DNA from: Coptis chinensis
Lineage: Eukaryota; Streptophyta; Magnoliopsida; Ranunculales; Ranunculaceae
Reading direction: 5' to 3'
Assembly (NCBI GenBank): GCA_015680905.1
Contig: CM027381.1
Location: 15,415,501 to 15,479,500, forward strand
DNA: 64,000 nt
Shown: in pieces, positions 7,682 to 43,568 of the stretch
Layout of the letters: each line of letters begins with the position of its first letter
Numbering within the stretch: position 1 is the first letter of the stretch
Made by a program: the position numbers and the translations under genes
The notes under the pieces: model-generated
What the model was told of the DNA's origin: nothing
Seen by the model: the letters and a program-made list of their open reading frames with translations, nothing else
Databases searched by the model: none

Positions 7682-7689
7682 CTAAATAT

Positions 7690-8028
7690 ATAACCAGACT
7701 CCTAAAAGGGCCTTAAAATAAGTACAAAACTAAGTACCAAATCTAAAACAACCCACAACTTCACCTACAAAATTATTTAAAACATAATTTTTTAGTGGAT
7801 ATGATATACTAACCATAAAGATCATCTCTACAAAAATTCAACTTGTTTGACAATTTTTAACATTGGCAAAAGATGATTGCAAAAACTCGACATTTCTGGG
7901 CCGTTAGATATTTTTTCAAAAGTTGACAACAATTTTTATCTAAGTTAGAGGATATCAAACAAGTTAAATTTTTGTAGAAATGTTCTTTATGGTGAGTAGA
8001 TCATATCAACAAAAAATTAGGTTTTAAA
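7690..8028. mobile_element. Foldback MITE-like element, copy 1
   Basis: The left side (CAACCCACAACTTCACC, then TGGATATGATATACTAACC, then ACAAAAATTCAACTTGTTTG) is mirrored on the right by CAAACAAGTTAAATTTTTGT, GAGTAGATCATATCAAC and TTAGGTTTTAAA. The whole segment can therefore fold on itself. It is near-identical to 8522-8880. The right end is cut where the small Helitron begins at 8029. Confidence 0.7.
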
Positions 8029-8517
8029 TCTATATCTTAATATTAAAGCTCCCACAAGGGGTATTTTTCGAGCTCTATTAAAATTCAACGTCATCTCCTA
8101 TTAAAACGGGAATTTCTCTCCTATTTGAAAAATGGGAATTCCTCTTCTATTATAGCGGGAATTCTTCTCCTATTTGAAAAACATGAATTCCTCTTCTATT
8201 ATAGCGGGAATTCTTCTCCTATTAAAACAAATTATAGCCCTTCTAATTAAAGCGGAAATCCTTCTCCTATTAAAATGGGAATTCCTCCCCTATTGAAAAT
8301 TAAGGGAAAATCTAGCGTATCTAATTAAAATGGGAATCATTTTCCTATTAAAACAGAATCTCTCTCCCAATTGAAAAAATGGGTTTTTAAAACTTAATTT
8401 AAAACAATTTGTTAGAAAATTAAAACGGTTTAGCGACTAAAACGGTAGTCCCAATTTTCTAAAAAAATCTAAATATTTTCAAAAGAGCCGGTGAGTATAC
8501 ACGGGCCTACAAGTTAG
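8029..8517 (+). mobile_element. Short non-autonomous Helitron (H4), 489 bp
   Basis: The 5' end is A|TCTATATCTTAATATTAAAG, the usual TC start with an AT-rich leader. The 3' end shows an imperfect hairpin (CCGGTG, loop AGTATA, CACGGG), eight bases, then TTAG|T, one change from the canonical CTAG|T. The host bases A and T flank it as expected for Helitron insertion between A and T. The interior is a minisatellite built on a GGGAATTCYTCTYCTATT-type unit of roughly 30-45 bases in nine or ten degenerate copies. There is no coding capacity. Confidence 0.75.
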
Positions 8518-8521
8518 TATA

Positions 8522-8885
8522 TATAGATAGCCTAGCTCCTAAAAGGACCTTAAAATAAGTACCAAATCTAAAACAACCAACACCTTCACATACAAAATGA
8601 TTTAAATCCTAATTTTTTGCGGATATGATCTACTAACCACAAAGAATATCTCTACAAAAATTCAACTTGTTTGACAATTTTTAACATTGGTAAAAGATGA
8701 TTGCAAAAACTAGACATTTCTGGACCGTTAGATTTTTTTTCAAAAGTGGACAGTAATTTTTATCTAAGTTAGAGGATATCAAACGAGTTGAATTTTTGTA
8801 GAGATGTTCTCTATGGTTAGTAGATCATATGCACAAAAGATTAGGTTTTAAATCATTTTGTAAGTGAAGTTGTGGGTTATATATA
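8522..8885. mobile_element. Foldback MITE-like element, copy 2
   Basis: A second, more complete copy of the foldback element at 7690-8028. The left end AACAACCAACACCTTCACAT is mirrored by GTAAGTGAAGTTGTGGGTT at 8860-8878. It contains the same inner ACCGTTAGAT box. A more distant relative lies at about 20690-20900. Superfamily not determined. Confidence 0.65.
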
Positions 8886-9512
8886 TAGGGAGGGATACGC
8901 CCACTCTCGCCTCTACCCACTCCAAATCGTGGCCACTCACTCCTCACATCTAGACGGTTCAAGTTAAAACAACCAAATAAACAAGGGAGGGTAAAATAGT
9001 CATTCAACTAACCCTTCGTTTGAATCGCAAAAATTCTCTTTCTCTACATGTTTTCTACCGGTCAAACCTTCTTCTCTAAACTCTCTCCTATTTCCCACCA
9101 ACCATAAAGAGAGATGGAATTGACGCCAACATTGAATGATTCAAGTGAGCAAACATTAATTTCAATTCCTTTTAATTTTTGCATACTTATATTTCCAACT
9201 TGTTTTCATACCATCTGTTTGAAGAATCAATTGTGTTTTTTGCATACTTAGAGCATCTCTAGGTGGTGGTAGCATACTCTTCATATTTGAAGAAAAATTT
9301 GAAGAAGTTGGTCGCAAATTCCGACCAACTCTAGCTGGTCGCAAATTTCACGAGCAAATTCACTTGACGGGCCCACCCTGCACGACATTAGTACTGGCGC
9401 ACGCCAGTACTAATGTCGCGTGCTATGTTTAATATAATGTCGCGCGACAGTTCGAGTTTTGTCATTTCACAACTTTTTTTTCAACTTAAGTCACTCTAGT
9501 TCTAGGAAAAAA

Positions 9513-11735
9513 ATGAGTTCCGACAACGAATACGTCTATAATAACCAAACACGATGGAGTGGTGACGGTGAGGAAGAAGAACATAGTGGTAATAGTGCAT
9601 ACATTTGGAACAATCCCATTGGTGATCTAGATGATGAACCAACCATACGGAGCTGGAAATCGTGAGAGTCGAGGTCGACGATCCATTCTTTGCTTCAATA
9701 TCGCAAAGTCGATTTTGAATTCCTGCGGAGGCTATTGATTTCAGCCATCTTAGGCCAGTGTCTAAGAGGTTTCATGATAGACATGTCTCAAGAGTTGTTC
9801 TTGAACAACAGGTATGTATTTTAATTTCCTAAATTAGTAGTAGTAGTAGTTAATTTTAGTAGTTCAATACGTACATTTTTACTTTTTATTTTTTTAATTT
9901 TAGTTTCATTTTGCGTACATCAGAGATGTGTTATGTATCGGGTTCGGTGCACTCCACATGCGCTTAAGACGTGGTGGGATGATATTAAGAAAGTTGGTGC
10001 ACTTGACCATGTTAGAGATGCAATTTTAGCGACTCCCTTTGCTCATCTAGTTGACATCCCTTACAATAAGACTGACATTCAGGGAGTTATTAATGGTTTA
10101 GTTGAGAGATGGTGGGATAGTACACATACTTTTCACTTCCCTCAGAGAGAGTTAGGCTTCACTCCATTAGATTTTTGCATGATATCTGGTTTGAGTATAG
10201 GATTAGGTAATCTATTGAGATGTACCACTGAATTCCAGAGTTGTGCCCAAATGATGACTTTCTTCCCTTGTTTGATCGATGAGTCATATGACAGTGCTGG
10301 TGTTAGGATTTCTGGTATCAGGGCTGCATACATTACACTGTTGACTACTGATTCAGGATTGCAGTTTTTGATAGATTATTTGTCACTTGATTCTGATGAT
10401 GGTCAAGCACATGTTGATGAGTATGTAAGAGCTTTCTATATGTATTTGATGGGTGTCTTCTTTTTTCCTTCTGGCCATTCCACAATTAACTTGGGATATC
10501 TAGCCAACTTTGAGCACTTGTATGAGTTGGGCGGTATTGATTTTGGTGGAGCCATATACTGTCATTTGTTGCATTGTTTAGATAGGGATTCTTGAGAGAC
10601 TGGTGTTGTCAGTAGTCCCCAGATGGGAGGGTTTGTCATTCTCTTAGAGGTATGGTTTTATGAGTATTTCCATGCTGTAAATCCTATCCTCACAGAGTAT
10701 ACCGATGAGAGGCCGAGGCTCAAGGCTTGGCACGGACCTCGTCGAGCTCGTCTGACCAGTGAGATCAGTCATAACATAACTTCTGTTCGAACCCAAATCG
10801 AGCTTAGCACACAGACTTCTATTGTTTGGAGGCCTTGGAGGACATCTGTGCACATCAGCGCGAATGACTGTAGATATGCATTGTTCATTTCTCATAGGAG
10901 AATGGTATTCACTTGTGGGAGTGATATGGAGTGGTATTTAGGGGATAGATGTTACAGACAGCTCACACCATACTTTGGTATCCCCCCTAATCTGCCTACC
11001 CATGTATCAGAGGCTAAGGACATGGCTTAAGAGCAAGTCATCGAGAGTAACGTGCATTGGACTTGGCTACAGGCTTCTAACCTAGTTACATTGCAGACTT
11101 ATGAGCAGTACTACCATTACTGGTTTAGGGTGTCTATTGGTCATTTCCTCCCAGCTGTAGGTCGTACAGGCAACATTCATACGGTTAGCAATTTGGGTGT
11201 CAGACGTGAATTCCAAATTGGCCAGCCGTCACAGCCGACGTTTCAGCCTGGACGTGTACACACATTTGTTCCAGCGCCAGACACCCCTCAGTCATAGTGG
11301 CCTTGGGTTTTTAGTTTGAGCGATCCGAGTGGCCAGACGATTTACCAGCCCATTTCTTCTATTGATGACACTCGCGTCGTACAGTTAGAGCCTGACCTTG
11401 GACATCTATCTCTAGTAATTTTTTTTATTGGTTTTGGTTTATTATTTTTGTTTATTATGAAAATGTCATAAATTATTAATGAATAATTATTTCAGGATGA
11501 CCTATGCATGAGATATGAGACAAGCATTCGTGTAAATGATGGCTTGCGCTCCTCGGTATTCGCCTACAGTGTTGAGAGAGAGAGAGACTTCTTTCCCAGG
11601 CTCATGTGGATTTTGACGATTTGCAATGCCAGATTGAGGAGTTACAGGCTCAGATTGATCGCACAAGGGTGAGTTCATCACAGCATGGTCAGACGGAGAG
11701 TTCAGCACAATGACAATCGAGGAGGAGTTCACGGC
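9513..11735 (+). pseudogene. Plant mobile domain (PMD) gene, left arm
   Basis: Aminotransferase-like plant mobile domain protein (PF10536 type), a family found both in host MAIN/MAIL1 genes and in transposons. The start MSSDNEYVYNNQTRWSGDGE at 9513 follows an A-rich leader. Exon 1 runs to about 9811 and the second exon starts near 9924. PMD hallmarks are TWWDDIKKVG, INGLVERWWDSTHTFHFPQ and LGFTPLDFCMISGLSIGLG, followed by a long helical C-terminus (GGFVILLEVWFYEYFH; DMEWYLGDRCYRQLTPYFGI). Relative to the right arm it has a frameshift in exon 1, an in-frame stop at about 10593 (after LDRDS) and another at 11028, so this copy is broken. A tail exon near 11500-11735 matches the mirrored sequence at 13480-13670. 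Confidence 0.8.
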
Positions 11736-11739
11736 AGAG

Positions 11740-12100
11740 GAGGCGTATGTAGGACAGTCTAGGAGGTTGTTGTATGACGATTATTATTATGTTGTGTGAT
11801 TTAGAATTGTTCATTTGATCATTTTGATATATTGTGTGATTATTATTATGTTGTGTGATATGTTGTGTGGTTATTATTATGTTGTGTGATTTAGAATTTA
11901 CTTCCTTTGATTTAGCAAATGAATTGCAATTTTTATTAATAGAACGACAACTAATACGTGATTGCAAAAACATAAAATAAAAATAAATAAATAAAAGACA
12001 ACTATTACATATCACCCTTATTACATACTACTAAAGTTACTCTAGTTATCAAGCCAGTCATCATTTTCTTCATCATTGGCTTCTTCGTCGTTGGAAGCAT
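11740..12100. repeat. TTATTATGTTGTGTGAT minisatellite between convergent ORFs
   Basis: Short repeats of ATTATTATGTTGTGTG at 11778-11890 lie in the region between the PMD gene and the convergent second ORF of the left arm. The same block is mirrored at about 13270-13390 in the right arm. Confidence 0.6.
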
Positions 12101-12108
12101 CATTTGTA

Positions 12109-12570
12109 TTACTTGCTCCAGCCTTTTTTTTCATATGTAGCTACAAGTGCATCTTGTTTTAGCTCTAAAACCCTTCGCAAACGAGGATTGACATTGTCGA
12201 GTGACATTGCCAACAACCTAGTCTCATTTTCCTCCTCTCTAACACGGAGTTTTTCTTGCTTCAAAAATAACTTTTTTTGTGTCTTCTCTTGCTTCAATTT
12301 CATCATACTTTGAAATTGCTCATTTTGAATCTCTTCTTTATTTCTTTGACTTTCTTTAAAAGCTTCAAGAAATTCATCCATATTTTTAGCAGTGAATGCA
12401 ACATTACCCTCAATAGTAGAAGCAATTTTCTTGTTCTTCTCAATTTCTTTGCTCTGCTTCCCTCTTGACCCGACCTCTCCAAAACCTTGATGCTTTGCTA
12501 GGATCATATTTCGAGTACAATGAAGGTGAAGGGGTAAAGTAAGGCGTTGAAGGGGTTGGGGGGAGGGTGA
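12109..12570 (-). pseudogene. NAM-associated / Harbinger ORF1-like C-terminus, left arm
   Basis: The minus-strand frame carries a charged coiled coil, MDEFLEAFKESQRNKEEIQN then KLKQEKTQKKLFLKQEKLRV, and ends ETRLLAMSLDNVNPRLRRVL. This order (glycine/lysine-rich GSRGKQSKEIEKNKK, coiled coil, LMS.D..N..PRL block) is the pattern of the C-terminal domain in plant PIF/Harbinger ORF1-derived, NAM-associated proteins. The N-terminal Myb/trihelix part is absent: the frame runs into the palindrome centre, where both arms are cut at the same point. It converges on the PMD gene of the same arm. Family call is from pattern recognition only. Confidence 0.6.
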
Positions 12571-12602
12571 AGAATCGAAACCTTCAACACTCGAAAGCAA
12601 GT

Positions 12603-13056
12603 ACCAACCCTTCAACGCCTTTACTCTACCCCCTTCACCTTCACCGCATCAAATATGATCCTAGCAAAGCATCAAGGTTTTTGGAGAGGTCGATAGAAAA
12701 AGCAGAGCAAAGAAATTGAGAAGAACAAGAAAGTTGCTTCTACTATCGAGGGTAATGTTGCATCCACTGCTAAAAATATGGTAGAATTTCTTAAAGTTTT
12801 TAAAGAAAGTCGAAGAAATAAAGAAGAGATTCAAAATGAGCAATTTCAAAGTATGATGAAATTGAAGCAAGAGAAGACACAAAAAAAGTTATTTTTGAAG
12901 CAAGAAAAACTTCGTGTTAGAGAGGTGGAAAATGAGACTAGGTTGTTGGCAATGTCACTCGACAATGTCAATCCTTGTTTGCGAATAGTTTTAGAGCTAA
13001 AACAAGATGCAATTGTAGCAAAATATGAAAAAAAAAAAAAAGGCTGGAGCAAGTAG
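12603..13056 (+). pseudogene. NAM-associated / Harbinger ORF1-like C-terminus, right arm
   Basis: Mirror copy of the left-arm ORF, reading outward on the plus strand. The frame from 12778 carries MVEFLKVFKESRRNKEEIQN and ends SLDNVNPCLRIVLELKQDA. An upstream piece at 12603-12700 (YDPSKASRFLER) is joined in another frame. It lacks the same N-terminal region as its partner, which shows that the dimer was formed from already truncated ends or that the fold point lies inside this gene. An A tract near 13028-13040 distinguishes it from the left copy. Confidence 0.6.
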
Positions 13057-13479
13057 TACAAATGATGCTTCCAACGACGAAAAAGCCAATGATGAAGAAA
13101 ATGATGACCGGGCTTGATAACTCGAAAATCTCTAGTAGTATGTAATAAGGGGTGATATGTAATAGTTGTCTTTTATTTATTTATTTTTATTTTATGTTTT
13201 TGCATCATGTATTAGTTGTCGCTCTATTAATGAAAATTGCAATTCATTTGCTAAATCAAAGGAAGTAAATTCTAAATCACACAACATAATAATAACCACA
13301 CAACATATCACACAACATAATAATAATCACACAACATATCAAAATGATCAAATGAACAATTCTAAATCACACAACATAATAATAATCGCCATACAACAAC
13401 AACCTCCTAGATCTGTCCTACATACGCCTCATCCGCCCGCGGAACCCCTTGATTGTCCTTGTGTCAACTCTCCGTCCGC

Positions 13480-15579
13480 CATGTTGTGATGAACTCACCC
13501 TCGCGATCAATCAACGAGAAATCAGAACTCATCAATCTGCATTGCAAATTGTCATAATCCACATGAGCCCGGGAAAGAAGTTTCTCTCTCAACACCGTAG
13601 CGAATACCGAGGAGCTTAGCCATCATTTACACGAATGCTTGTCTCATATCTCATGCGTAGGTCATCCTGAAATAATTATTCATTAATAATTTATGACATT
13701 TTCATAATAAACAAAAATAATAAACCAAAACCAATAAAAATAATTATCAGAGATAGATGTCAAAGGTCAGGCTCTAACAGACGACGCGAAAGTGTCATCA
13801 ATAGAAGAAATGGGTCGGTAAATCGCCTCGCCACTTTGATCGCTTCAAACCGAAAACCCAAGGCCACTCGACTATAGGATCCGGGCGCTAGAACAAATGT
13901 GTGTACAAGTCCAGGCTGAAACGTCGGCTATGATGGCTGGCCAATCTGGAATTCACCCTAAACCAGTAACGGTAGTTCTGCTCATAAGTCTGCAATGTAA
14001 CTAGGTCAGAAGCCTGTAGCGAAGTCCAATGCACGTTACTCTCGATGACTTGCTCTAAAGTCATGTCCTTAGCTTCTGATACATGGGTAGGCGGATCAGG
14101 GGGGATACCAAAGTATGGTGTGAGCTGTCTGTAACATCTATCCCCTAAATACCACTCCATATCACTCCCACAAGTGAATACCATTCTCCTATGAGAAATG
14201 AATAATGCATATTTACAGTCATTCGCGCCGATGTGCACAGATGTCCTCCAAGGCCTCCAAACAATAGAAGCCTGTGTGCTAAGCTCAATCTGGGTTCGGA
14301 CAGAAGTTATGTTATGACTGATCTCACTAGTCAGATGAGCTCGACGAGGTCCGTGCCAAGCCTTGAGCCTCGGCCTCTCATCGGTATACTCTGTGAGGAT
14401 AGGATTTGCAGCATGGAAATACTCATAAAACCATACCTCTAAGAGAATGACAAACCCTCCCATATGGGGACTACTGACAACACCAGTCTGCCGAGAATCC
14501 CTATCTAAACAAATGCAACAAATGACAAAGTATATGGCTCCACCAAAATCAATACCGCCCAACTCATGCAAGTGCTCAAAGTTGGCTAGATATCCCAAGT
14601 TAATTGTGGAATGGCCAGAAAGAAAAAAGAAGACACCCATCAAATACATACAGAAAGCTCTTACATACTCATCAACATGTGCTTGACCATCATCAGAATC
14701 AAGTGACAAATAATCTATCAAAAACTGCAATCCTGAATCAGTAGTCAACGGTTTAATGTATGCAGCCATGATACTAGAAATCCTAACACCAGCACTGTCA
14801 TATGACTCCTCGGTCAAACAAGGGAAGAAAGTCATCATTTGGGCACAACTCTGGAATTCAATGCTACATTTCAACAGATTACCTAATCCTATACTCAAAC
14901 CAGATATCATGCAAAAATCTAATGGAGTGAAGCCCAACTCTCCCTGAGGGAAGTGAAAAGTATGTGTACTATCCTACCATCTCTCAACTAAACCATTAAT
15001 AAATCCCTGAATGTCAGTCTTATTGTAAGAGATGTCAACTAGATGAGCAAAGGGAGTCGCTAAAATTGCATCTCTAACATGGTCAACTACACCGACTTTC
15101 TTAATATCATCCCACCACATCTTAAGCGCACGTGGAGTGCACCGAACCCGATACATAACACATCTCTGATGTACGTAAAATGAAACTAAAATTAAAAAAA
15201 TAAAAGTAAAAATGTACGTATCGAACTACTAAAATTAACTACTGCTACTACTACTAATTTATTAAATTAAAATACATACATGTTGTTCAAGAACAACTTT
15301 TGAGACATGCCTATCATGAAACCTCTTAGACACCGGCCTAAGATGGTTGAAATCAATAGCCTCCGCAGGAAATTCAAAATCGACTTGCTGATATTGAAGC
15401 AAAGAATGGATCGTCGACCTCGACTCCCCTCGATTTCCGAATTGGTTGGTTGGTTCATCATCTAGATCACCAATGGGATTGTTCCAAATGTATGCACTAT
15501 TACCACTGTTTTCTTCTTCCTCACCGTCACCACTCCATCGTGTTTGGTTATTATAGACGTATTCATCGTCGGAACTCAT
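13480..15579 (-). CDS. Plant mobile domain (PMD) gene, right arm
   Basis: Better preserved inverted copy of the left-arm PMD gene. Exon 1 runs from MSSDDEYVYNNQTRWSGDGE at 15579 to about 15283, ending VVLEQH before a GTATGT donor. Exon 2 starts at about 15163 after a CATCAG acceptor (RCVMYRVRCTPRALKMWWDD). One stop near 14974 separates the first 60 residues from a 349-residue frame (14937-13888). That frame runs through GFTPLDFCMISGLSIGLG, GGFVILLEVWFYEYFH, WRPWRTSVHIGANDCKYA and EWYLGDRCYRQLTPYFGI. The long open frame next to the broken left copy suggests the right copy stayed under constraint longer or has had fewer hits. Function in the host is unknown; known PMD proteins MAIN and MAIL1 act in genome stability and silencing. 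Confidence 0.7.
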
Positions 15580-18500
15580 TTTTTTCCTAGAACTAGAGTG
15601 ACTTAAGTTGAAAAAAAAGTTGTGAAATGACAAAAGTCCGACTGTCGCGCAACATTATATTAAACATAGCACGCGACATTAGTATCGGGCGCTAGCTAGT
15701 ACCACCGGCCGCTACGACAGTGATATTATATCGCACGCCACTAATGTCGCGTAGGGTGGGCCCGTCAAGTGAATTTGCTCGTAAAATTTGCGACCAGCTA
15801 GAGTTGGTCGGAATTTGCGACCAACTTCTTCAAATATGAAAAGTATGCTACCACCACCTAGAGATGCTCTATATTTCCAACTTGATTTTTGCATACTTAT
15901 ATTGTATCATTTGCATACTTATTTGCATACTTATATTTCCAACTTGATTTTGGGCATACTTATATTATCTATTGTGTTTTTTGTAGAATCAATTAATGAT
16001 ATCTTTCTTCATACTGAAGTATCTGAGAAAAATTAAAATGAGGCCGCTTCTTCTTCTCTTCCAACTCGAGATGACATAGAAATAGTAGAGAATGTAAAAT
16101 CACCATATTTTGGAATGAATTTTACAAGTCTGGAAGCTGCGAAACGGTTTTTTATAAACTACTGGAAAGCATTGGGATTTAGTGTCGTTACTCGAAGTAC
16201 CCAAAAAAGAATTCCACGTTCAGATGAAGTGAGTACTTGTTAAATAACTTGCGAGCGTTTTGGGACTTACATAGAACGAGTAAAAAAAATGACAGATGAG
16301 GGGTCTAAGAAAGAAGTAATAAAGTAGAGGAGAAACACGAATATGGTGAAATGTGGGTGTTTAGAAACAATGAGAGTGGCAAAACAAGATAGTGGATTAT
16401 GGAAAGTGGTGAAATATATTAGTGTGCACAATCACAACCTTGTTAGTCTGGCGAAAAGGATGTGCATGCCTGTTTGCAAAAATTTGCATGTTGCAGCTAA
16501 GATGTTGATTGACTCATTTCGTGATGAAGGCATACATGTGAATAAAGTTGTTTATATACTTGACGGACCACAAAATGGTTTTTTTGACAGAGATTGTTGG
16601 AACCACTTAACTCCATCGAAGGAGTACAAGAAACTTGTCAAAGGTGATGCTACCACAATGCTTAATTTTTTTTTTTAAGAAGAAGAGTATAGAAGATCCT
16701 AATTTTTCTTCTACGCAATACAGATGCCCCGATAGCGAATGAAGCACGGGCAATAATTTTTTTTTGGGTAGATGGTCGTTCACGTATGCAGTTTTAGTAT
16801 TTTGGTGAGGTTCTTTTCTTTGACACCACATATCGCAAAAATGTATATGAAATGCCATTTGCGCTGTTTACTGGAGTAAACCGCCACATGCAGTCAATCC
16901 AGTTTAGTTGTGCACTCCTATTGGATGAGACAGAAGAATCATTTCAATGGGTTTTTGAGACTTGGCTTGCAACCATGGGCGGGCGGGCCTCATCTTCAAT
17001 CATCACATATCAAGACAGAGCTATGACGGCGGTTGTTGCGAAGGTATTCCCAAATACACGACATAGATTTTGCCTATGGCACATTTTGAAGAAATTCTCT
17101 GAAAAACTTCCACATGTTTATTTCAAGAGGTCATCTTTCAAAAAAGCTATCAAAATGTGTGTTCGGGAAACTTATATTCCTAGTGTTTTCGAAACGAAGT
17201 GGAAGAAATTTATGTCTACATATGAGTTGGTGGAAAATGAATGGCTCATAAGAATATACGAGATTCATGAAAAATGGGCACCGGTTTATCACTTGGATAC
17301 TTTATATGCTAGCACTAATACTACCGGGCATTCGGAAGGCATGAATTCTTTTTACAAGAATTTTTTCCATTCAACTGTAACTCTTAGAGAGTTTGTGTTA
17401 AAGAATGATAGGTGTTTGAGTAAAATTTTTTATATTTACAGAACACTCAGATCGCATTGTCGATAGTAATGCTTTTCTCTTGAACAGTGCATCAAAGGTG
17501 TATATAAGGAATGTGTATGATAGGTTCAAGAAAGAATGTGAGAAAGCTCGAGCTGAGTATGTCTTGGATGATGATGAAAAGGGTAGTGATGGCTACATGA
17601 CCTACACTTACAGGTCTCAAGTGAAGGTGATCAGTGTGAGGGGAAGGTGAAGTTTAACCCAGCCACAAAATAAAGTAACTGTGAATGCAAACTTTTTGAG
17701 TTTCTAGGGATACTTGTGAACACCTTGTAAGGGTTTTTCAGTGTCATGATATAGAGATACCCGATCACTTTATTTTAAAAAGGTGGATGAAAGGGGCTAA
17801 CAAATATAGAGCTGAGTATGACGGTGGACTAGTAATTGGCCATAAGAGTTCTAAGGTACTGAGAACTACCCAAATTTAGATGGATGCCAATCAATTAGTC
17901 TATGAAGTGGTTGAAACAGATGAGACTTACCAATTGATGTTGCAAAGATTACAAGAACTATCACTGGAGCTCAAGGAAATAAATAAGACTAACGATGAGA
18001 GCAAGATTTCAGTTGTCAATTCATGCACTGTTAATGAAAACTCACAACCTGCAATTGATGCCTCACAAGTGTTACTGATGAATCCTAACATCTCACAAAC
18101 TAAAGGAAGGAAAAAAAGAAGTGAAGGTTTACAAAAGTAGTACTAGAATAAAAGGAGGTATGGAGAAAGGCATTGCAAAAACTAGCAAAGGGAAGACAAG
18201 CAAGAGATGTACGTACTTGTTGTAACCAGGTTGGTGTTAATCACGATGAACGAAATTGTCCAGAAAATCCAAATAGGAAGAAGGGGATAAGTAAGTAAAA
18301 TGATTTCCGTAGTTTTCATTCATTTATGTTTTCCTAGTATACTAAAAAAATTTGTTTGGAGTTCACTTTAAAATTGACATTTGTCATCACTTTCTTACTT
18401 TACAGTTATTGATGAGGAGATTGAGGATGTGGATCGGACGATGATGGAGATGATGATGACGACGACAAAGATAGAGATGGTGATGAAGACAACGACTAAA

Positions 18501-23945: not shown

Positions 23946-24141
23946 CTTATGGGCACTTTCAAGTGTTAGGCCACCTTTGATCAATACACCTTGAAAAGCA
24001 CCAACTCCAGTACCAACCATAACTGCAGTGGGAGTTGCCAGGCTGAAAGCTTTGATCAATACAACCTTTTGCAAGTATATGACGATAACAGATATTCCAA
24101 ACTAAAGAGCCAGCTGGAAGCTAACCATTGAAGAAGGTATC
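23946..24141 (-). pseudogene. HMA5-like Cu-ATPase exon, 3' half
   Basis: The half of the exon downstream of the Gypsy insertion. It reads SSMVSFQLAL, a stop, [12 protein letters not shown], then [36 protein letters not shown] and a GTTAGC donor. In P1B-type copper ATPases this region carries the metal-coordinating CPC motif (ACPCALGLATPTAV). Here CPC is replaced by unrelated residues, so even without the insertion the fragment could not encode a pump. The exon continues at 43862-43940 across the 19.7-kb insertion. Confidence 0.88.
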
Positions 24142-24432
24142 TGTATAGGACGTACACATGACCTAGGAGGTTAGTGGTGACAAAGGGACGGATGCGGTAT
24201 AGCGTTGGAAGACAGGGTGGTGCACAGATCGATCCAGCGGTATCCCAACCGGCCTGAACCCCGCTAAACGTGGAGAGTGGGAGAGCGGCACCAGGAACTG
24301 CAAGGTAACCGCTGCGGTACGTGGAAAGAGGGAGGATATAAGATAGAGAAGGAGCGCCAAAAAGAGGGGGAAAGAAAAACGGAAAAAGAGGAGAGAGGAG
24401 GAAGATCAGAGGTTGTAATCATAGTCTATACA
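24142..24432 (+). repeat. 5' LTR of the Tat-type Gypsy element
   Basis: 291 bp, TGTATAGG to CTATACA, followed directly by the primer-binding site. It contains GAGGATATAAGATAGAG, a plausible TATA region. Direct repeat of 43569-43861. Confidence 0.9.
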
Positions 24433-24466
24433 TTTTGGCGCCGTCTGTGGGGAATAGCGAGATAAA

Positions 24467-26614
24467 ATGGCCACCATAACAAAAAAGGGGGTAGGAAGAC
24501 CTAGAAAGGAAGTTGTTCGAGAGGAAGTAGTGGAAGAAGTGAGTGAAGAGAGAGAGGTGAGTAGAGAGGAAGACATATCGGATGTGGCGGCAGACGCCAC
24601 CAGACTTATGCAAGAAGAAATAGTCAGGTTAAGAAACGAGAACGATGAATTGAGAAAGGAAAGAGACACCGCACAAGAGGACATGGAACATGGGGATCGC
24701 CGGGGCAGTGAGATGGAAGGAGAGAATGAGGTATACCAGTCTAGGGGAGTAGATACGGTAGAGGGCATCACGCTAGAAGTGGTACAGGCCATGATCGAGA
24801 AAGATAGAGAAGCTAACCGTGCGGTAGAAAAAATGAACCAAAGTGCTGCTCAAAAGGAGGTTGCTAACCTCAACAAGAATCCACTGGCGGATTCGATCTG
24901 GAATTCAGAGGTACCTAAGAGATTCAGTCAACCAAGATTCGAAAGATATGATGGGAAAGGCGACCCAACTGATCATTTGCATCATTTTAGACAAATGATG
25001 CCATTGTGGCGAGGAAAAATAAGTATGACGGATTAAGCCGCATGATGTTCCCCCGCAAGCCTTAAAGGGGCGCCGGATTGTATTACCGCCTATCTTCGCG
25101 AAGCATCAATAGGTTTGAAGAACTAGAGCGAAGCCTTCGTGGACCATTTCATCCACCGTAAACGGAGAGTAGTGGATATCAGCGCACCGCTTTTAACATC
25201 AAACAAATGGGTCACCGAATCGTTAAGGGAGTTCCCGTCGCAGATTCAAAGAAGAGACCCGAGGGTGGAGAATCTGGAGGAGCATACCGCGGTTATTGCA
25301 TTTCAGCACGGATTGAAGCAGGGGACTAGGGTGCATGAATCAGTGTCCAAAATCGAAATCACCACTCTGCACGCTTTGTACCCAAAGGTAGAAAAGTATA
25401 TTCGGTACGAAGATATAATGCAAAGAAATGCGAGGGAACAAAAGAGATCGGGGAAGGCAGTGCAGGCGGTGGATAAAGACGACAGAAGAGATAGGGGTAA
25501 GAGAGAAGAGAGAGAAGGGGGATCCAACAGAGGGGAAAGACGTGGACCCGACAGATCTGGAGATCGGAACAGGAGGGATATTCGTGAAAGAAAGCCGTAC
25601 CGTGAGATAGAACAAACACCTCTTAATAGGCCACTAGAGGAAATCTTGCCACTCATCAAGGGGCTGCAGCATTACGAAGGACCGCGGAATACACCTGGAG
25701 AGATTGAGGGAAAACCATTTTGTGCCTATCATCAGATTAGAAACCACGCCACTAACGAATGTTATGCTTTGAAATGGCTGGTGGAAAGAATGATTGAGAA
25801 GGGGATGCTTAGAGAATATGTCGCGGAGGTTCGTCATGCCGAGAGAGGGCAGGCTCCCGCTAGGATCTTGGGTACAATAAATGTCATTTACAGTGGAGAG
25901 ACACTCGGGAGGAATGCCCACCGGGACAAGATGAGAAGGACAGCGAGCTTACAACAGGTTAATGAAGTGACAAGCATGACGCGGTTAGTTTCAGGAACCG
26001 CGATGGCAGTGGGAAACATAACTTTCACTCCGAAAGACTTGGAATCAGTGATTTCGCCGCATGAAGATGCGTTGGTGATTACCATAGCAATGGGTAATTA
26101 TCTAGTGAAGCGAGTGTTGATAGACTGCGGAAGTTCAGTAGACATGTTGTTCATAGGGGCCATGGAAGAGATGAATATAGATAGGGATCAGTTGAGGGTT
26201 TCTCAGACTAATTTGTACGGCTTCAATGGAAGCATGACAAAGCCTATGGAAGAAATAACGTTGCCGGTAACTGTAGGTCCGACGACGGTATTCACCAGAT
26301 TTATGGTGGTAGATACGGGGTCCCAGTATAATGCCATTCTAGGGAGAAGATGGATTCATGAAATGAAAGCTATTCCATCGACCTATTATCAGGTGATCCG
26401 CTTCCCCGCGAAAGGGGGGGTGTACGAAATAAAGGGGGATCAGGTCGCGGCTCAGAATATACACCAAGTGACGGTAAAAAGTATGGTTCGTGGAATAGGG
26501 AGTGAAAAGCGAGAAATGACAAGGGAGAAGCGTAGCAATTACAGGAAGCCGTACTCACTGAAGAATGCGAATCTCATCAGAGGCCCAAAACTCTGGATGA
26601 AATTGAGATCGTGA
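24467..26614 (+). pseudogene. gag and protease region of the Tat-type Gypsy element (fossil)
   Basis: Begins with a charged coiled-coil N-terminus, then a retrotransposon gag domain around 24870-25400 (PRFERYDGKGDPTDHLHHFR; FQHGLKQGTRVHESVSKIEI). An arginine-rich linker follows, then CAYHQIRNHATNECYALKWL, a knuckle-like segment, and the protease at about 26085-26400 (VLIDCGSSVDMLFIGAMEEM; GSQYNAILGRRWIHEM). The order and the long basic linker fit the Tat group. Treated as a broken fossil. Confidence 0.85.
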
Positions 26615-26749
26615 ACCTGGGGGTGGGGGAGGAAGAAAAATTTACTTCAGTGGGGTCGGACTTGCCAAAAGAGTGGAAATTCAAACTGACACAATTATTA
26701 GCAGAGAATGTTGACATATTTGCTTGGGCGGCGATTGAAGATATAACAG

Positions 26750-28400
26750 AATAGATCCAGAGTTAAGCTTGCCATCACTTGCACATGAAGGAGGGTGCGA
26801 AGCCTATAAGACGTAAGATGAGAAGCGTAAAGACCCAAATCTGTGCGGAAGGGATTCGCGAAGAAGTTATCATATTAGGGATGCGGGTATAATCGGAGGC
26901 GTAGGATGTACAGAGTGGTCATCCAAACGTGGTCGCGGTTCCAAAAAGAACGGCAAGGTTCGAATGTGTGTGGACTTTACAGATGTAAATAAAGAGTGTC
27001 CTAAAGATCTGCTTATCCTGCCGCCAGGTGGATGAGTTAGTAGATAGAACAGCTGGTTTCAAGGTATTCTCTTTCATGGATGCTTCCATGGGATATAATC
27101 AGGTCGCGATGTTTGGCCCAGATCAAGAAAAGACTACATTCGTGGTGGAAGGAGGTACGTATTGTTATACAAGAATGCCTTTTGGTTTGAAGAATGCGGG
27201 GGCTACATTTCAGCGGTTGGGGGAAAAAATGTTCGAGGACAAGATTCGAAAAGGCATGGAAATATACATTGATGATATGGTGGAGAAAAGCATGTCGGAG
27301 GAAGAGCATTTGAAGGGTCTCCAGGAAACTTTTCACATACTGCGGAAGCATAGTCTGAAGCTGAACCCAGAGAAATGCACATTCGGGGTATCTTCGGGGA
27401 AGTTCTTGGGATATATAGTCATGTATCGTGGAATTGAGGCCAATCCCGAGCAGATTAGATCCCTAGTGGAGATGCCGTCCCCTCAGAATGTAAAGGAAGT
27501 GCAACGGTTAGCAGGTAGAGTCGCGGCATTGAACAGATTTATATCCAAATCCTCGGACAAGTGCAGACCGTTGTATCGCTTGCTGAGAAAAACGACAGAT
27601 TTTCGATGGACCACGGAGTGTGAGGAAGCCTTCCAGGAGTTAAAGATTTATTTAGGGAAAGCCCCTTTACTATCACGGCCAGAGGAAGGAGAGATATTGT
27701 ATCTCTATTTGGGGGTTTCAGAGTACGCAATAAGTTCAGTTCTGGTCCGTATTGTAGAGAAGATAGAGAAACCGGTTTATTTTCAGAGTAAAACCATGCT
27801 AGCCGCCGAGTCGCGATACAGTAGAATTGAGAAGTATGCTTTAGCGTTGATGTTCTCCGCATTAAAGTTGAAACCCTATTTCGATGCACACTCAGTGGTA
27901 GTGATAACAAATTTGCCTCTCAAGCAAGCGTTGAAGGCAGACAAGTCAGGGAGAATGCTGAAATGGGCGGTGATGCTTAGTTGTTACGAAATCAAATATC
28001 AGGTTAGAAAAATGAAAAAGCGCAAGCCATGGCGGAGTTCCTAGCGGAATTTCCAGCCGAGGATCCCACTTGGGGAGAGGAAATGGTTATGGATCAGGAA
28101 GAAGAATCTGATCATGATCCCTTGGACCCATGGGATACCCGCAATGGTTGGAGATTATTCGCGGACGGATCAGCTACAGACACCGGAAATGGGATTGGCG
28201 TGGTTTTGGTGACTCCAGACAACACAAAGTTGGAGTTATCAATGAAACTAGGATTTGCAGCTTCTAATAATGAGTCCGAATATGAAGCAGTGATAGCAGG
28301 TTTGAATATGGCACAGGATCTGGGAGTAAGCGAGTTATCGGTGTTCTCGGACTCCAATTTGGTTATTTGTCAGATGAATGGGGATTTGTAGCGTTGTCCA
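26750..28400 (+). pseudogene. Reverse transcriptase and dual RNase H region (fossil)
   Basis: The reverse transcriptase shows FSFMDASMGYNQVAMFGPDQ, RMPFGLKNAGATFQRL and the catalytic YIDDM at about 27270. The retroviral-type RNase H follows (RPEEGEILYLYLGVSEYAIS; AAESRYSRIEKYALALMFSA). A second, archaeal-type RNase H is at 28140-28400 (WRLFADGSATDTGNGIGVVL; ASNNESEYEAVIAGLNMAQD). The second RNase H is the diagnostic domain of Tat-lineage elements. Broken fossil. Confidence 0.88.
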
Positions 28401-28507
28401 AGGATGGCACGATATTTAGAGGTTCTCCGACAAAAAGCCGAAGTTCAAAAGATTCAATTTGCTCATTTCAGCCAAGGTGAAAACGTGACATCTTGACGCT
28501 TTAGCAT

Positions 28508-29411
28508 TTGTGGCGCTGGTTCTTCCAGAACGAGGGTCGTTCTATTGAAGTAAGAGTTTTAAACAGACCAAGTACATCAGAAACTGAGAGTGTGTGTCTC
28601 ACCGTTGAAAAGGAGATAGGATGGATGACGCCCATTAAAACTTTTCTTATGGGAGCAGAGATAGAAAATGCCAAGGAAAGACGCCAGATGGAGCAGGTTA
28701 GCCAAAGATATGTTTTGTTAGATGGGGAGTTGTACAAAAAGAGTTTCAGCGGCCCCCTACTGAGATGCATAGGACCACAGCAGGTGCAAGAGGTTTTGGC
28801 CGAAGTACATGAAGGTGATTGTGGAAGTCACTCAGCGGGTCGAACCACGACCCATAGATTGATATCGCAGGGATATTTTTGGCCTCATATGAAAAAGGAT
28901 GCGACAGAGTATGCAACAACTTGTGAGAAATGCCAAAGATTTGCCCAACTAATCCATTCCCCGGCAGAGCCACTCCATAATGTGTTTAGTCCGTGGCCGT
29001 TCGCCATGTGGGCACTCAATATAGTGGGGCGTTGTTCCCCGCCAGCGGCAAGAGAAGATTTATGTTGGCCGCCACTGATTATTTCACCAAGTGGGTAGAG
29101 GGAGTGGCGCTCCAGCAAGTCAAAGAGGAAAATGTGAAGAAGTTCCTCTGGGAAAACATAATATGCAGATTCGGTTTACCCCATACAATCATTGCAGATA
29201 ATGGAACACAATTTACTGGAGGAAAAGTACGTCAATTTCTTCAAGCCTACAAGGTGAAATAGAAGTTCTCGACGCCATACAATCCGGAAGGGAACGGCAA
29301 AGCCGAGGCATCAAACAGAATCATAATGGACAATTTAAAGAGAAAATTGGAAGACCGAAAAGGAGCGTGGGCTGATGAATTGAATCATGTGTTATGGGCT
29401 TATCGTACTAC
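28508..29411 (+). pseudogene. Integrase region, split by the nested element (fossil)
   Basis: Zinc-binding HHCC-type N-terminus (EVHEGDCGSHSAGRTTTHRL; CEKCQRFAQ) and the catalytic core (ATDYFTKWVEGVALQQVKEE; GLPHTIIADNGTQFTG). The frame ends in WAYRTT at 29411, where the nested LTR element begins. The C-terminal part resumes at 39074 and runs to about 39330 (LEEYHRRLQRQYDKRVKPRE). Broken fossil. Confidence 0.85.
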
Positions 29412-30549
29412 TGATAAATGTAAAAATAGTAGAATCCTAATATCATGTTAACAACACTAATACGAAATCCTATCGTTCTTACGTTTAAATCAATTCTTCT
29501 TACTCTCAAAACATAATCATGCAATACAACGAGTAAGGATTTCGTTCCACTCTTAAACCCTCAAGACTTAAATAGAATTCAATTATTCAAACACAAGGAA
29601 CAGTGAGAGTGATGTGTTTGGTGTTTAAACTAAAACTAATTATAAATTTAAGACAACTAAATCTAAAGATTCTAAGTTTATGAAATTTAACAAACAATAA
29701 TTAAAATCTAACATCAATAACTACGAAATGACTAACAACCAAGAAATGAAATTAGATCTAAGCAATAGATAAATGACAAAATCGAATTTGATCAATAATA
29801 AACTACTTGATTTATCTAATGAAGCAATAACAATATTTTAATACTTTAAATTAAAACAAGGGAAATGAAAACTAATAAAAATGGAGATTCAAAACTAGAT
29901 CTAGATCTAAAAACTAATCTAGATCTATCTTTTTCTAACCCTAAACTCCATTAACATTAGCTTCCTAACCTAACTGCCATTAACAAAGAGTCAAGCTTTT
30001 GTTTTTATCCTTCCAGATCCAAAAATCGTGCATGGGCTTGGAGCCATGTTTTGGGCCGGAAAATCGGGCCCAAAACCCAATTTCTTTAGTCCAAAATGGG
30101 CTCCTCAGCTGCAGTTGGCTTCGACAGATGTTTCGTCCACTTCTACTCCTCTGATTGGGTCAAGGCTTGGTCCATTGGAAAGCTCTTTCCGAGCCGGTCG
30201 TTTTGACATAAGGTAGGCCCAATTCAAGGTCTGAGTCCAAAGATATGGTCTTCGAAGTTCTTGCTGTCTTTGTGCATTTACTTTTGCGTGGACTTTGACT
30301 TTTTATCTTTTGACCAGGCTTTACAAAGGCTTTGTCTTCTTGAATCTTGGCCTTTAATCACCGAACTCCTTAGTAACCAACCATTGCTCCTTTATCTCAT
30401 CAAAGTGGCACATTCCTGAACATAATTGACTTTGAAGCCTGAAATACATAAAAACACGTAATCAGTATTAACTCTTACTTATTACTCACATAATTAGTCT
30501 AAAAGTACAATTGTTAAGGGGTTAAAACTACAGTTTTGGGCTCTTATCA
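29412..30549 (-). repeat. LTR of the nested element (3' LTR on the minus strand)
   Basis: 1138 bp, a direct repeat of 37934-39068, with inverted ends TGATAAATG and TTATCA on the plus strand. Differences from the partner are a handful of substitutions and short indels. Confidence 0.9.
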
Positions 30550-33500
30550 AACCACCCCAAACAGCATTTTGCTTGTCCTCAAGCAAATATGAGAAATTAG
30601 AATAAGTGACCAAAAATGAAGTTCTAACTACTCGCTTTTCGAGTGCGATTGCATTGACCATATGCAACAAGGCCTTAAACCACTAGGAATTCCCTAGTGG
30701 GCGAGTTATAGCCTCGTGAGAGTTTTCCAATTGAAGGTACTCACAAACTTCATCTATACTACAACGACTAAGAAATAAAACTATTGTTTCCTCATTCATG
30801 TCTCAACTATCTATACATCTCACTAGCAATTGAATACAGAATAATCATGTCGAAACCTAAGCTAATATATGCATAATAATCAATCATCTATGAATAAACA
30901 TATATACAATGAGTAATGCTATGAAATGCTTAGCAGGTCCGTTTCTGAAAACTCGGAATAGCGTCCTTAAGTAGGTCCTCACATAAAAGTCAAGACAAAA
31001 ATCACTCTCGATTTTTCCTTCCAAGTTCGCTACTCCGATTAATGCGGTGGGCACACTTTACCTTACAATCTCAATGACAAACAGGAAGCCGGAGTCGATC
31101 AAACACATCTGCCACTTACTATCACACCAACCTATTCCTAATTGAGCTAGAGGTCTTTATTAGGTGTTGCGGGGATTAGGAGATGGTTTTGAGAAAGAAG
31201 GAAATGGATATACAAAAGGACAAGTCCGAGATAATAGAGTCTTCATATTATGTAACTTAGAAAACCTTGTTATTTTCTTTTGCTTCTATACTCTGTTTCC
31301 ATCCTTAGCCATATTTTTCTTTTTCTTTTCTTTGGCTTTTGACTCCCTTTTATTCTATTTTTGGAGTTTTTATTTATTTCTATTTTTCTTTTTCTTTTTC
31401 TTTTCTTTTCTTTGGATGGAAACTTCTTTTCTTTTTTTGAAGCAACTAACTAATTTTTGTTTACACAGGTTTTTCTCTTCTTCTTTCTTCACTCATTCTA
31501 TTCTCAGACTTATTCTAGATTGGGTAAGTTGAATTTTTTATTTTGTTTTGTTTTGTAACAGGGTAAAGGAATTGTGGTTTATGGAAGGCTAAAGAAAGGC
31601 TCGAGGGGCTTAATAAGCGGAAAAAATTTCATAGGTTTGAATTTCTGGCTATATCGATCCAAAGAGGGCCTAAATTCTCGCTTAGGATATAGCATAGTGA
31701 TCAAGCAAGTGGACGTGTGATTTCTCTATCCGGATTTTACTTCTCCCTTGTGTCATTTCTCAAATATTTCGCTCATATAAGGCTTTTTAGGCTATATTCT
31801 CCACAGGATTTGTAGAATAAGTACTCTAGCCTAGATTTCAGAAACTTACTACTAACAATCATAGATACTCATGTAATATATTTATAGATAGATGCAAAGA
31901 TTATTACCTACATATTAACCTAAGTTTCTAACAATTATTCGATGCAAAAAGCTACATTGAGACTTCTAGATTGTTAAGAGCATAGAGAAAGAAAACAATA
32001 CCAATATTCCTAAGTGTATAGCATAAATTTATTTATTTATATTTTTGAAATTTTTAACTTGAAAACAAATGCATATTATACATATCTATATCCTAACATA
32101 TGCCTTAATTACACGTATTTCTATGCCCCCCAACAAGAAGAATGCTTTGTCCTCAAAGCATTTAAATAAAGAGGGTAAAAAATACCATGGAAATACGAAA
32201 TTCGGAACATCTCGCAAAACAAGGTTAAAACATACAAATATAGTAATATAAAAAAAAAAAAAAAACTGACGCAACTCTATAAGAGTTCCACCCATTATGG
32301 GGTTAACAGAATTAAATTGCTTGGGACATAAGCAGACACTAACTGAAACTAAAAACTTACCTCCACTCCAGCGTTTACTCGTCATCCTCCTCTTCTATAA
32401 AGAAGTGAGGTTCCTTTGCATCCTGCCATGCCATTATAATTTGCCAAGCTTGCCGCCATTTATCATCTACGGATCCTAACCTTTAAAGCCCACTTGGTCG
32501 GATGGGGTGTAAGGTGCAACCCGATGAGGTTGTATCCTCCACCCTTGCCAAGTCATTACACGGAAAAGATCGAATAATAGAATTGGTGGGTCTCACAATG
32601 TCGACCCCAACCTAGTCCGCGTGAAACGGGCACAAAAAAAGGGAAGAAACATAGTATAATACGGCAAACTAATATAGGCATAAGAAGATACTTATGCCTC
32701 ATGCTATGGGCTCATGCTAAACTAGACATTAAGGTCTTAGGAAGGTCATATAGCAGGCGTTCCTCGCCTAAAGCAAGGAAAACATCGCAAGTGGCATCAT
32801 TCGCGGAGAAAAAATGTCACTCCCCTAATATGTTTAGCATGATAAAGAACATTACCGTATCACATTAAGGGACAAGCTACCAAGGGCTACGTTATATGTC
32901 CCTTGGTCCTCTACACGGAAAATGCCGGACCCATAAGCCTCATGCAAAAAGTCATAAGTGTAGACATGCATATTATCTACGAATAGCATCATGGGTCTTG
33001 CATTTCAGCGGCATGGCAAGTCCAAGAACAAATGCTAGCAAGAACCATAAAGCGGTTCCCAGCCTCCGTGTGTGATCACCTCACAAAACCAAGCACCATA
33101 AGTAGTGCTTTGAAACAAATCTTTGAAAGATCTGTTCGGTATTATTGTAGGAGATGTCATCTCAAAACTACGCCTGAACAAACCGCAAATCACCCCGAAC
33201 AACCCGCTGAAAATTGGAATTTTTCCGTCCACGGAAGTCGAGCCTTGAAGCGCCAACTAGAAGCGCGAAGTCGCTCTCTGTATTTAAATTCCAGTGTTTG
33301 GCGAAGTCGCTTTGGTATGAGGGCGGGTCGGTGCTCTGTCCCATGGTCGATGGGTATGGTCGCTTCGATTATGAAGGCGGTCGCTACCGACAAAATTCTT
33401 CAAAAAAAAGTAAAAGGCCATGGCGACGACAAAGCCTTGAGCGCTTCGTAAAGTAGCTGAAACCGGAGTTTAGAGCAAAAAGAAGGTAAAACTTGGAGTG

Positions 33501-33840
33501 GAAAACGTTTTTTTTTTTTTTTAAAGGAGCGAGGTGGGGGTAAGAATAGGAAGTTTAGTGATCAAGCATGGAAAAACCAAACACCCCACCCCCAAACAAA
33601 TTTTTGAAAACAGGTTTGTAAAAATTTGTTTTAAAACGTGGGTCTTTTAAAGTCAGATTCCCTAGACTTAAAGTGATATATATGTATTTACATGCAGTTT
33701 CCCATATATCAATAATCTAAAAGTTGTGGGTCTTTCCACAAATAATTAACATGGAATGCACCATCAAAACGTAATTAAGCACCAAGATTTCCTATGATGT
33801 AGCTTAGTGGAATGAGAGTAAAGCCTTATAGATCTAAAAC
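30550..33840. other. Non-coding interior of the nested LTR element
   Basis: 3.3 kb without recognisable coding sequence on either strand, including pyrimidine-rich tracts (31290-31440) and an A tract (32251-32266). This is where reverse transcriptase, RNase H and integrase would lie in an autonomous relative. The longer open frames here (31164-31532, 33032-33451) are low-complexity or unrecognised. Confidence 0.55.
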
Positions 33841-36760: not shown

Positions 36761-37933
36761 TTCTAGATAGGCGTGTTATATTTATTTCTACGAAAAACAA
36801 GCCCTGATTATACTAGAATTAAAACTCCTCCTACGAAGAGGCGAGGAGTGGAAGAAGAAGGAGTACATGAATGCCTCCTTTCTACGCGTTTGAATAAGCG
36901 TCTTGTATCTGCGATTTCCATTATTTTAACAAGTTAGAAACACTAAATAACTTTAAGGAATAAAATTTGCATTTTTCTGTGAAAATTGGGCTGTTCACAC
37001 TGAATTTTCCCTTGAGGGCGCGAGTGGGCGCGAGTGCCCTCTGTTTTGTCGAATGTCCAGTGTTTTCGGCGCGGGTCGCGCTCGGTTTGGGCGCGGGTCG
37101 CGCTCCAGGGTTTTCAAGTTTTAGGCCTTTTATCGTACTCCAAAAAATCTGAAATTTTTACAGTAATTTTCTAAGACGTCTATCAAGTAGCCTGTAAAAT
37201 TTCAGATCAATCGGAGCTGTGAAAGTCCCTCTACAGCCCTTCAAAGTTTGCGAAACGGTTTTCGGACACAATACAAACAACCGAATGGTTAACCCATCAA
37301 AAAAAATCCAAAAATTTCCAAATTTTTACTGGAGACTCCTGACAGATCCTACTTGTTCCTGTAAAATATTTAGAGCAATTGGAGTCCTACAACCTCTCCT
37401 TATTGGCTGGTGTTTCAGATATTAAGTGTTTGCAACACTGCAGAAACACACTGGAAACACTCTACTATTTAGGAGGTCAAAACAAATCAAAAACTTGTCA
37501 AATTTTTACTAAAAACTTCTGACTTAGGATAGATACTCCTGTAAAAATTATAGAATTTTTATAACTCCCTAAGTAACCTTATTCGTCTGTTTTTCAAGAA
37601 CATACGGTGTGAAAACTGAAATGCAGCACTGTAAAGATCGTATTTGTTTCACAAGGTAAACCAACTTTGAAAAATCTGAAAATATTCCAGTAAATCAACA
37701 ACACATTCAATAATATGTATGAAAATTTTAAGAATTTTCGAAAATTTAGAAATACCTTCACCGCAGTGTTTTTCTCAGTGAATCCGCAGCCCCTATGCCT
37801 GAAACGAAGAGCGGTTCGAAAATCAAGAAATAAGAATGAAAAATTAAAGGGTGGGTGGGTAGAGAATGGGGATTGCCCCTTGATTCAAGCAATTGAATTC
37901 TTGTCATGAAACGAGATTAAGATGGCAGCCATT

Positions 37934-39068: not shown

Positions 39069-39639
39069 ACTACACCACGGACTTCGACGAAGGAATCACC
39101 ATTCGCAATGGCATATGGCGTAGAAATCATCATACCGGGTGGAAATGATAGGAAACGACAAGAACCAGGCCGGGAAAGAGTCTTAATGAAAATATATTAG
39201 CCACTGAGTTGGATATAATGGAGGAAAAACGAGATACGGCTCGCATACGACTGGAGGAGTATCATAGAAGGTTACAGCGACAGTATGACAAACGAGTGAA
39301 GCCGCGGGAATTCACGGTTGGGGACTTGGTGCTCGGGCGGTTACACCACCACTAAAAAGGAGAATGACGACAAACCGGGACCTAATCAGGAAGGAGTCGT
39401 ATGTCGTGGACGCAAAAGGAAATTCGGGTACTTACAAAATTAAGACCCCGGAAGGGGTAACTGTGGAGAAACAATGGAATATAAGAATGCTGAAAAAATT
39501 CCATGAGAGGAGCAGTGTGTAGCTTCCATTGAAACAAGCATCTTTTGTGTTATGTATATATGTTATCTGCGGAATTCTAAGTCAATGAATCAAAGATTGC
39601 ATTCCTGGCTCAATAACTTGCATAGAAATTAATCGATAC

Positions 39640-43341: not shown

Positions 43342-43568
43342 CTCGATTTTGAAGGGCGACCCTACTTAGGCACGTCTCGCCGTATTTCGCCCGTATTTCC
43401 GGTTAAGCGATCTGAGGGAAGCACGTGGAACACGTCTTTGGGAAAAAGGGAATATGTCAGAAGTGGGAGGATCAAACAAGAAGAATTCAGCAGAGGGTGT
43501 ACGGAAAGAGAAAGAGGAGTTCTCGGCACCATTGCCCGTCGCGGACCAACAATGGGGCCGAGAGGGCA

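What the first reader, a model, noticed from the sequence alone, without database searches (positions are those of the whole stretch)
9251..15869. 6.6-kb palindrome made of two inverted copies of a PMD + NAM-associated gene pair
Each 3.3-kb arm holds a plant mobile domain gene and a convergent ORF resembling the C-terminus of Harbinger ORF1-type proteins. The arms meet at a spacer of about 40 bp inside the second ORF, so both copies lack the same N-terminal part. Outer ends form a terminal inverted repeat flanked by TA. A foldback element built from a whole gene pair is not a structure I know as described. PMD genes are known in transposons, but this arrangement would put two promoters and two convergent gene pairs in one mobile unit and could produce long hairpin RNA.
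Basis: partly seen in the sequence, partly recalled or inferred. Interest (0 to 1): 0.78.

Follow-up and report, generated by a model that had tools for sequence, protein, structure and literature searches.

The report
Head-to-head double copy of a transposon
In a plant genome, the left four-fifths of a jumping element of known type has been copied back-to-back in mirror image; it looks like a single accident of DNA repair, close in design to maize's Mu killer, and whether it makes silencing RNA is untested.

Summary
The palindrome is real. Arms are 3339 and 3266 bp, 93.6% identical (2996 of 3201 aligned positions), with a 14-bp filler between them. The divergence and a genome-unique junction speak against an artefact. 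The window lies in a 936-Mb genome, a plant by its genes. The parent is an abundant family: 613 left-type ends at up to 2 mismatches, short derivatives included. Nine near-complete copies are 4.1-4.3 kb, with a PMD gene and a convergent NAM-associated gene; target duplications are mostly TTA/TAA (11 of 14). The ends are Harbinger-like; no transposase was found in them. The window element is the left ~3.3 kb of such a copy, doubled in mirror image. Both outer ends are LEFT-type, and the missing part of the second gene is the lost right end. Among the copies examined no other is a palindrome of this kind. Best reading: fold-back repair at a short inverted repeat, or an equivalent template switch, then insertion as one unit. 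Two tail-to-tail copies with a central deletion remain possible. Closest precedent: Mu killer of maize. Hairpin-RNA function is untested; methylation-type decay in the arms is like that of ordinary copies.

The parts
9248..9250 (.). left target-site copy TTA
   Evidence: the family's duplication is TWA in 11 of 14 copies
9251..9310 (+). left terminal inverted repeat, left-type (GAGCATCTCTAGGTGGTGGTAGCATACT...)
9251..12589 (+). left arm (3339 bp), collinear with the left part of ~4.2-kb family copies
9513..11297 (+). PMD gene copy, left arm, approximate limits, broken by stops (PF10536 hits in ORFs 9933-10595 and 10623-11030)
12109..12589 (-). C-terminal part of the NAM-associated (ORF1-like) gene, left arm; N-terminus missing
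12590..12603 (.). 14-bp filler at the junction; the 26-mer across it (12585-12610) is unique in the genome
12604..15869 (-). right arm (3266 bp), mirror copy
12604..13056 (+). C-terminal part of the NAM-associated gene, right arm
13888..14937 (-). PMD gene copy, right arm (349-aa ORF, PF10536 E 1.1e-19)
15262..15633 (-). first PMD-gene exon region, right arm
   Evidence: exon reading by eye
15811..15869 (-). right terminal inverted repeat, also LEFT-type, not the family's right-type end
15870..15872 (.). right flank TAT (TA duplication, or TTA minus one T)

Best explanation
This is a defective, single-copy, inverted-duplication derivative of an abundant ~4.2-kb transposon family with Harbinger-like ends. 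The family carries a PMD gene and an ORF1-like NAM-associated gene. Inferred formation: one copy broke ~3.3 kb from its left end, at a short inverted repeat (GTTGAAGG...CCTTCAAC, loop ~28 nt). The broken end folded back, or the repair switched template, and the left part was copied in mirror image up to the left terminus, leaving a 14-bp filler. Having two compatible left-type TIRs, it was then inserted as one unit at a TWA site inside a repeat with FAR1-like remains. The arms have since diverged: K2P 0.067, roughly 2.6-4.8 My at two recalled substitution rates. Read-through from either PMD copy would give a self-complementary RNA; that is inferred, not shown. Shown: structure, left-type ends on both sides, junction, its uniqueness in this assembly, element-free paralogous sites. 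Inferred: the order of events, the fold-back step, any RNA effect.
For: Single-arm copies: in 20 of 20 loci fetched around the left end (L009-L028) the arm match runs in one orientation, apart from opposite-strand pieces of 40-170 bp in L009, L016 and a few others; L026 holds only the first 172 bp. Fourteen were given both a left and a right end. Both window ends are left-type, while the right ends of those 14 carry other sequence after the first ~17 bases. The two arms break within ~34 nt of the same parent position, with filler between. A GTTGAAGG/CCTTCAAC stem at the breakpoint is the predicted fold in 5 of 9 copies and partly in L017; L009, L011 and L028 fold otherwise; local stability is in the top 3.6-10.3% of each element. 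Arms are sisters at 100% UFBoot with 10, 22 and 32 other copies (branch 0.008-0.009). Homology ends at the TIRs plus 1-2 flanking bases. Three element-free paralogous sites are contiguous over the joined point. Junction 26-mer: 1 match at up to 3 mismatches, the window's own.
Against: The sister branch is short (~0.9%) beside 2.8% and 4.9% terminal branches. In three genome searches with arm segments 1-2 other copies matched better than the partner arm. Only 3 of 6 segment trees give the arms as exclusive sisters. Most of the several hundred family members were not sampled. Six-bp stems with loops up to 40 nt cover 31-33% of the two copies measured, so a stem at the breakpoint is mild evidence. 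The target duplication is imperfect. The reversed-pattern control of the junction search also had 1 match.
Confidence: 0.6

Rival explanations
1. Two different copies inserted tail-to-tail (left ends outward) and the facing right ends were then lost by a central deletion with filler.
For: The family does sit side by side: L029, L030 and L043 read as left-end-outward pairs of elements with right ends between. The partner arm is not the clear best match.
Against: Arms are sisters at 100% UFBoot. They share changes at arm positions 72, 1235 and 1652 that 0 of 22 sampled others have. Two deletions would have to end within ~34 nt of the same element position.
Confidence: 0.22
2. In-place gap repair: a normal element sat here, broke or excised, and the right side was resynthesised from a left end through the ~17 outer bases shared by both TIR types, giving two left arms joined by filler. 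No transposition of the palindrome is needed.
For: Left- and right-type ends are alike over the first ~17 bases. The filler and the one-base defect in the right flank fit repair.
Against: Nothing distinguishes it from unit transposition; the needed template switch is not directly visible.
Confidence: 0.15
3. Sequencing or assembly artefact (missed adapter, chimeric read).
For: Palindromes are a known artefact class (recalled).
Against: Arms differ at 205 of 3201 positions with 32 gap runs, carry different stops, and are bounded by TIRs.
Confidence: 0.02

Closest known systems
Mu killer (Muk), maize
   Same: Internally deleted, partly duplicated DNA transposon; both TIRs derive from the same element end; two partial gene copies end in an inverted duplication (PMC3440606, abstract and passages).
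   Different: Parent is MuDR, not this family; Mu killer silences its parent; its centre could not be sequenced, whereas here the centre is read. No RNA or silencing data here.
PIF/Harbinger elements (Tourist-type ends; type name recalled)
   Same: TWA target duplication, short TIRs, ORF1-like NAM-associated gene.
   Different: No DDE transposase found in the copies examined; a PMD gene is present; the window copy is palindromic.
PMD captured by DNA transposons (MULE) and carried by Ty3/Gypsy
   Same: PMD inside a mobile element (PMC5418596, passages).
   Different: Those reported there are MULE and Gypsy; this family has TWA sites and an ORF1-like gene.
Fold-back inverted duplications at double-strand breaks (yeast)
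   Same: Inverted duplication near natural inverted repeats (PMC10622511, outline and abstract); fold-back at microhomology with end joining of the other side (PMC11724301, passages).
   Different: Experimental yeast events, those of PMC11724301 mostly very short; the plant event is inferred from a scar.

Membership tests
Mu killer-like inverted-duplication transposon derivative | Both outer TIRs derive from one end of the parent element | tested here: met
Mu killer-like inverted-duplication transposon derivative | Two partial gene copies meeting in an inverted duplication, parent family present | tested here: met
Mu killer-like inverted-duplication transposon derivative | Produces RNA that silences the parent family | not testable with these tools
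   no RNA data; sequence decay at CG/CHG/CHH sites in the arms lies within the range of nine ordinary copies
PIF/Harbinger superfamily | 3-bp TWA target-site duplication | tested here: met
   parent family: 11 of 14 copies clean, 1 ambiguous (L013), 2 without (L009, L028), read; the window copy itself is imperfect
PIF/Harbinger superfamily | Myb/SANT-like ORF1 | tested here: inconclusive
   NAM-associated PF14303 41 bits, over its cut-off of 27.7; Myb_DNA-bind_4 only 13.8 bits against a cut-off of 27
PIF/Harbinger superfamily | DDE_Tnp_4 transposase | tested here: inconclusive
   none of 150 listed PF13359 places lies in or within 2 kb of 36 examined places, but only 150 of 1585 candidates were scored and the ORFs were scanned only in part (4 pieces); a transposase may act in trans
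Foldback (FB/FARE-type) elements (names recalled) | Family whose members share long inverted arms | tested here: not met
   20 of 20 fetched loci are not palindromes; only the window matches both halves of the centre among 40 scored of 159 candidates; junction unique

The most novel reading that the evidence does not exclude
A natural hairpin locus that silences, or once silenced, hundreds of copies of its own PMD-bearing family: a Harbinger-side counterpart of Mu killer with its centre sequenced, arising in a previously undescribed group of Harbinger-like elements that carry PMD, a domain of silencing proteins, where a transposase would be expected.
Probability: 0.1. Interest if true: 0.65.

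Novelty: new member of a known kind. Interest (0 to 1): 0.35.

Why it matters
It gives a base-by-base view of the centre of a Mu killer-type rearrangement, the part that could not be sequenced in Mu killer itself (PMC3440606), and points to DNA repair, possibly at a short inverted repeat. The parent family is worth a look of its own: an abundant transposon group with TWA target sites that carries a plant mobile domain. In the passages I read, PMD is described for MULE and Gypsy elements; the listings showed no paper on PMD in Harbinger-type elements. If the locus makes siRNA, it would be a testable self-silencing switch.

Tried and rejected
Other palindromic copies. Of 613 left-type ends, 227 distinct ones from the listed rows were compared. 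Three facing pairs lay within 20 kb: L029, L030 and L043. I read all three as neighbouring elements that keep their right ends; none has long mirror-image arms like the window's, though L043 has a 70% self-inverse core of 424 aligned bases and L030 has TTA on both outer sides, so a composite is not excluded there. The other 386 ends were not compared, so palindromes may be missed. Among the 32 places with the shared marker, the window was the only close inverted pair (read by eye).

Shared marker as proof of one ancestor: rejected. It is also in 12 other exact places, which are less like the arms overall. I relied on the trees instead. L026 (172 bp of arm) was left out of the trees, and so were L029, L030 and L043.

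Unequal divergence of the arms (121 against 72 derived sites): much of it is one stretch, arm positions 2000-2500 (42 against 10), so no rate argument was built on it.

Selection on PMD: weak at best. N/S relative to neutral in the main PMD frame is 0.91 for private and 0.78 for shared changes; the shifted-frame control gives 1.12 and 1.04; the first-exon frame gives 1.77 and 0.71.

First hairpin-stability scan anchored at a wrong place in 5 of 9 copies; redone. One search failed on a file path and was redone. In one search a short hand-typed list of transposase places held wrong entries; it was replaced by the full listed set.

Full report
Observation. The self-inverse match runs over the whole of 9251-15869. 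A global alignment of the arms gives 2996 identities in 3201 aligned positions (93.6%), 32 gap runs, 137 transitions and 68 transversions, K2P 0.067. Twenty mononucleotide shuffles gave at most 37.4 bits against 3507. Arms this different do not come from a read folded on itself.

Genome context. The window is C5:15415501-15479500 of a 936-Mb, 116-contig genome. Plant origin is inferred from the plant mobile domain and a FAR1-like hit. The left 28-bp terminus occurs 613 times at up to 2 mismatches, 0 in the reversed-pattern control; short derivatives are included. I fetched the next 20 places after the window itself from a list in which 40 of 996 candidates were scored. In all 20 the arm match runs in one orientation apart from short opposite-strand pieces (40-170 bp), and none is a palindrome of this kind; L026 holds only the first 172 bp. 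Of nine near-complete copies, eight are 4186-4258 bp long and L011 is 4126 bp.

Parent element. In 14 loci both ends were placed. Reading, 11 have clean matching TTA/TAA duplications, L013 is ambiguous, and L009 and L028 have none. Left and right ends share about 17 outer bases and then differ. The PMD gene reads inward from the left end and a second gene reads from the right end towards it. The second gene hits NAM-associated PF14303 (E 4.5e-10, over the cut-off); its N-terminal part reaches only 13.8 bits for Myb_DNA-bind_4, below the cut-off. PF13359 transposases exist in the genome (151 matches, 150 of 1585 candidates scored), but none of the 150 listed lies in or within 2 kb of 36 examined places, the window included. 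The family has Harbinger-like target sites and second gene; no transposase was found in it, and the test is not exhaustive.

The window element. Both outer ends are left-type. The left arm is collinear with parent copies to about 12589; the right arm starts at about 12604, ~34 nt short of the same parent position; 14 bp belong to neither. So the second gene lacks its N-terminus because the right end of the parent is lost. At the breakpoint a GTTGAAGG/CCTTCAAC stem is the predicted fold in 5 of 9 parent copies (L010, L013, L014, L019, L025) and partly in L017; L009, L011 and L028 fold otherwise. The 52-nt stability there is in the top 3.6-10.3% of each element. Stems are common, covering about a third of the two copies measured, so this is suggestive only. 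In the centre search only the window matched both halves as one palindrome, among 40 scored of 159 candidates. The 26-mer across the filler has one match at up to 3 mismatches, its own; the reversed control also has one. So the palindrome has not visibly multiplied in this assembly.

Insertion. It lies in a repeat next to FAR1-like remains (PF03101, 25.8 bits, just under its cut-off of 28.1); the neighbouring 204-aa ORF looks MULE-transposase-like by recall and was not searched. Paralogous sites without the element cross the joined flanks. The three fetched (L044-L046, 75-80% identity) have extra repeat bases 5-11 nt left of the joined point, and are contiguous at the point itself. The flanks fit a TA duplication or TTA with one T lost.

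One copy or two. The arms are sisters at 100% UFBoot with 10, 22 and 32 other copies, and share changes seen in none of 22 others. Against this: the branch is short; in segment trees the arms are exclusive sisters in 3 of 6 (100, 98, 93), not in the other three; and in genome searches the partner arm ranked behind 1 other copy, behind 2, and behind 1 and level with another. Each of those searches scored 40 of 195-278 candidates. I hold single-copy fold-back as likelier, not proven.

RNA and silencing. Read-through from a PMD promoter would make a self-complementary transcript, but nothing here shows transcription. C-to-T type decay against the majority of copies in CG, CHG and CHH contexts is 0.12/0.10/0.02 and 0.10/0.12/0.03 for the arms, within the range of nine ordinary copies (0.07-0.12, 0.07-0.14, 0.02-0.06). 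That gives no sign of extra RNA-directed methylation; the test is weak. PMD genes can yield phased siRNA in tea plant (PMC10673657, passages), so the idea is reasonable.

Comparison. Mu killer has the same plan: two TIRs from the mudrA end of MuDR and two partial mudrA copies in inverted orientation; its centre resisted sequencing, and later transcript data changed the hairpin model (PMC3440606, abstract and passages). PMD is reported in Gypsy and, by capture, in MULE elements (PMC5418596, passages). A review (PMC8616336, passages) treats PMD proteins and Harbinger-derived proteins in separate sections. Full-text searches for PMD with Harbinger, with transposon and with terminal inverted repeat listed no paper whose title, abstract start or passages, as I saw them, describe PMD in Harbinger-type elements; preprints and most subscription journals are not held. 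A search for Harbinger with inverted duplication listed no palindromic Harbinger element by title or abstract start; for PMC11390486 I saw passages.

Verdict. Real, well bounded, explained by known processes, of a known kind. Interest 0.35; the main open value is the parent family and an siRNA test.

Noticed in passing
L009-L028 (parent family): Abundant Harbinger-like family (613 left ends, short derivatives included) carrying a PMD gene plus an ORF1-like gene; no transposase found in the copies examined.
   Followed up: partly
L029, L030, L043: Family members, some about 500 bp, sit side by side with right ends facing; adjacent insertion seems recurrent.
   Followed up: partly
about 13415-13912 (right arm, arm positions 2000-2500): A divergent patch in the right arm (42 derived sites against 10 in the left arm), possibly gene conversion or misalignment.
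   Followed up: partly
24132-43861 and 29412-39069: Direct-repeat pairs (92% and 97% identical) around retroelement-like ORFs look like nested LTR retrotransposons; only, names by recall.
   Followed up: no
8520-8878 and 7683-8030: Short repeats 87% alike to each other, one with 121-nt inverted arms at 8575-8878, next to the palindrome.
   Followed up: no
L031-L042: A sequence marker shared by the arms also occurs in 12 less similar copies, suggesting mosaic, recombined family members.
   Followed up: partly
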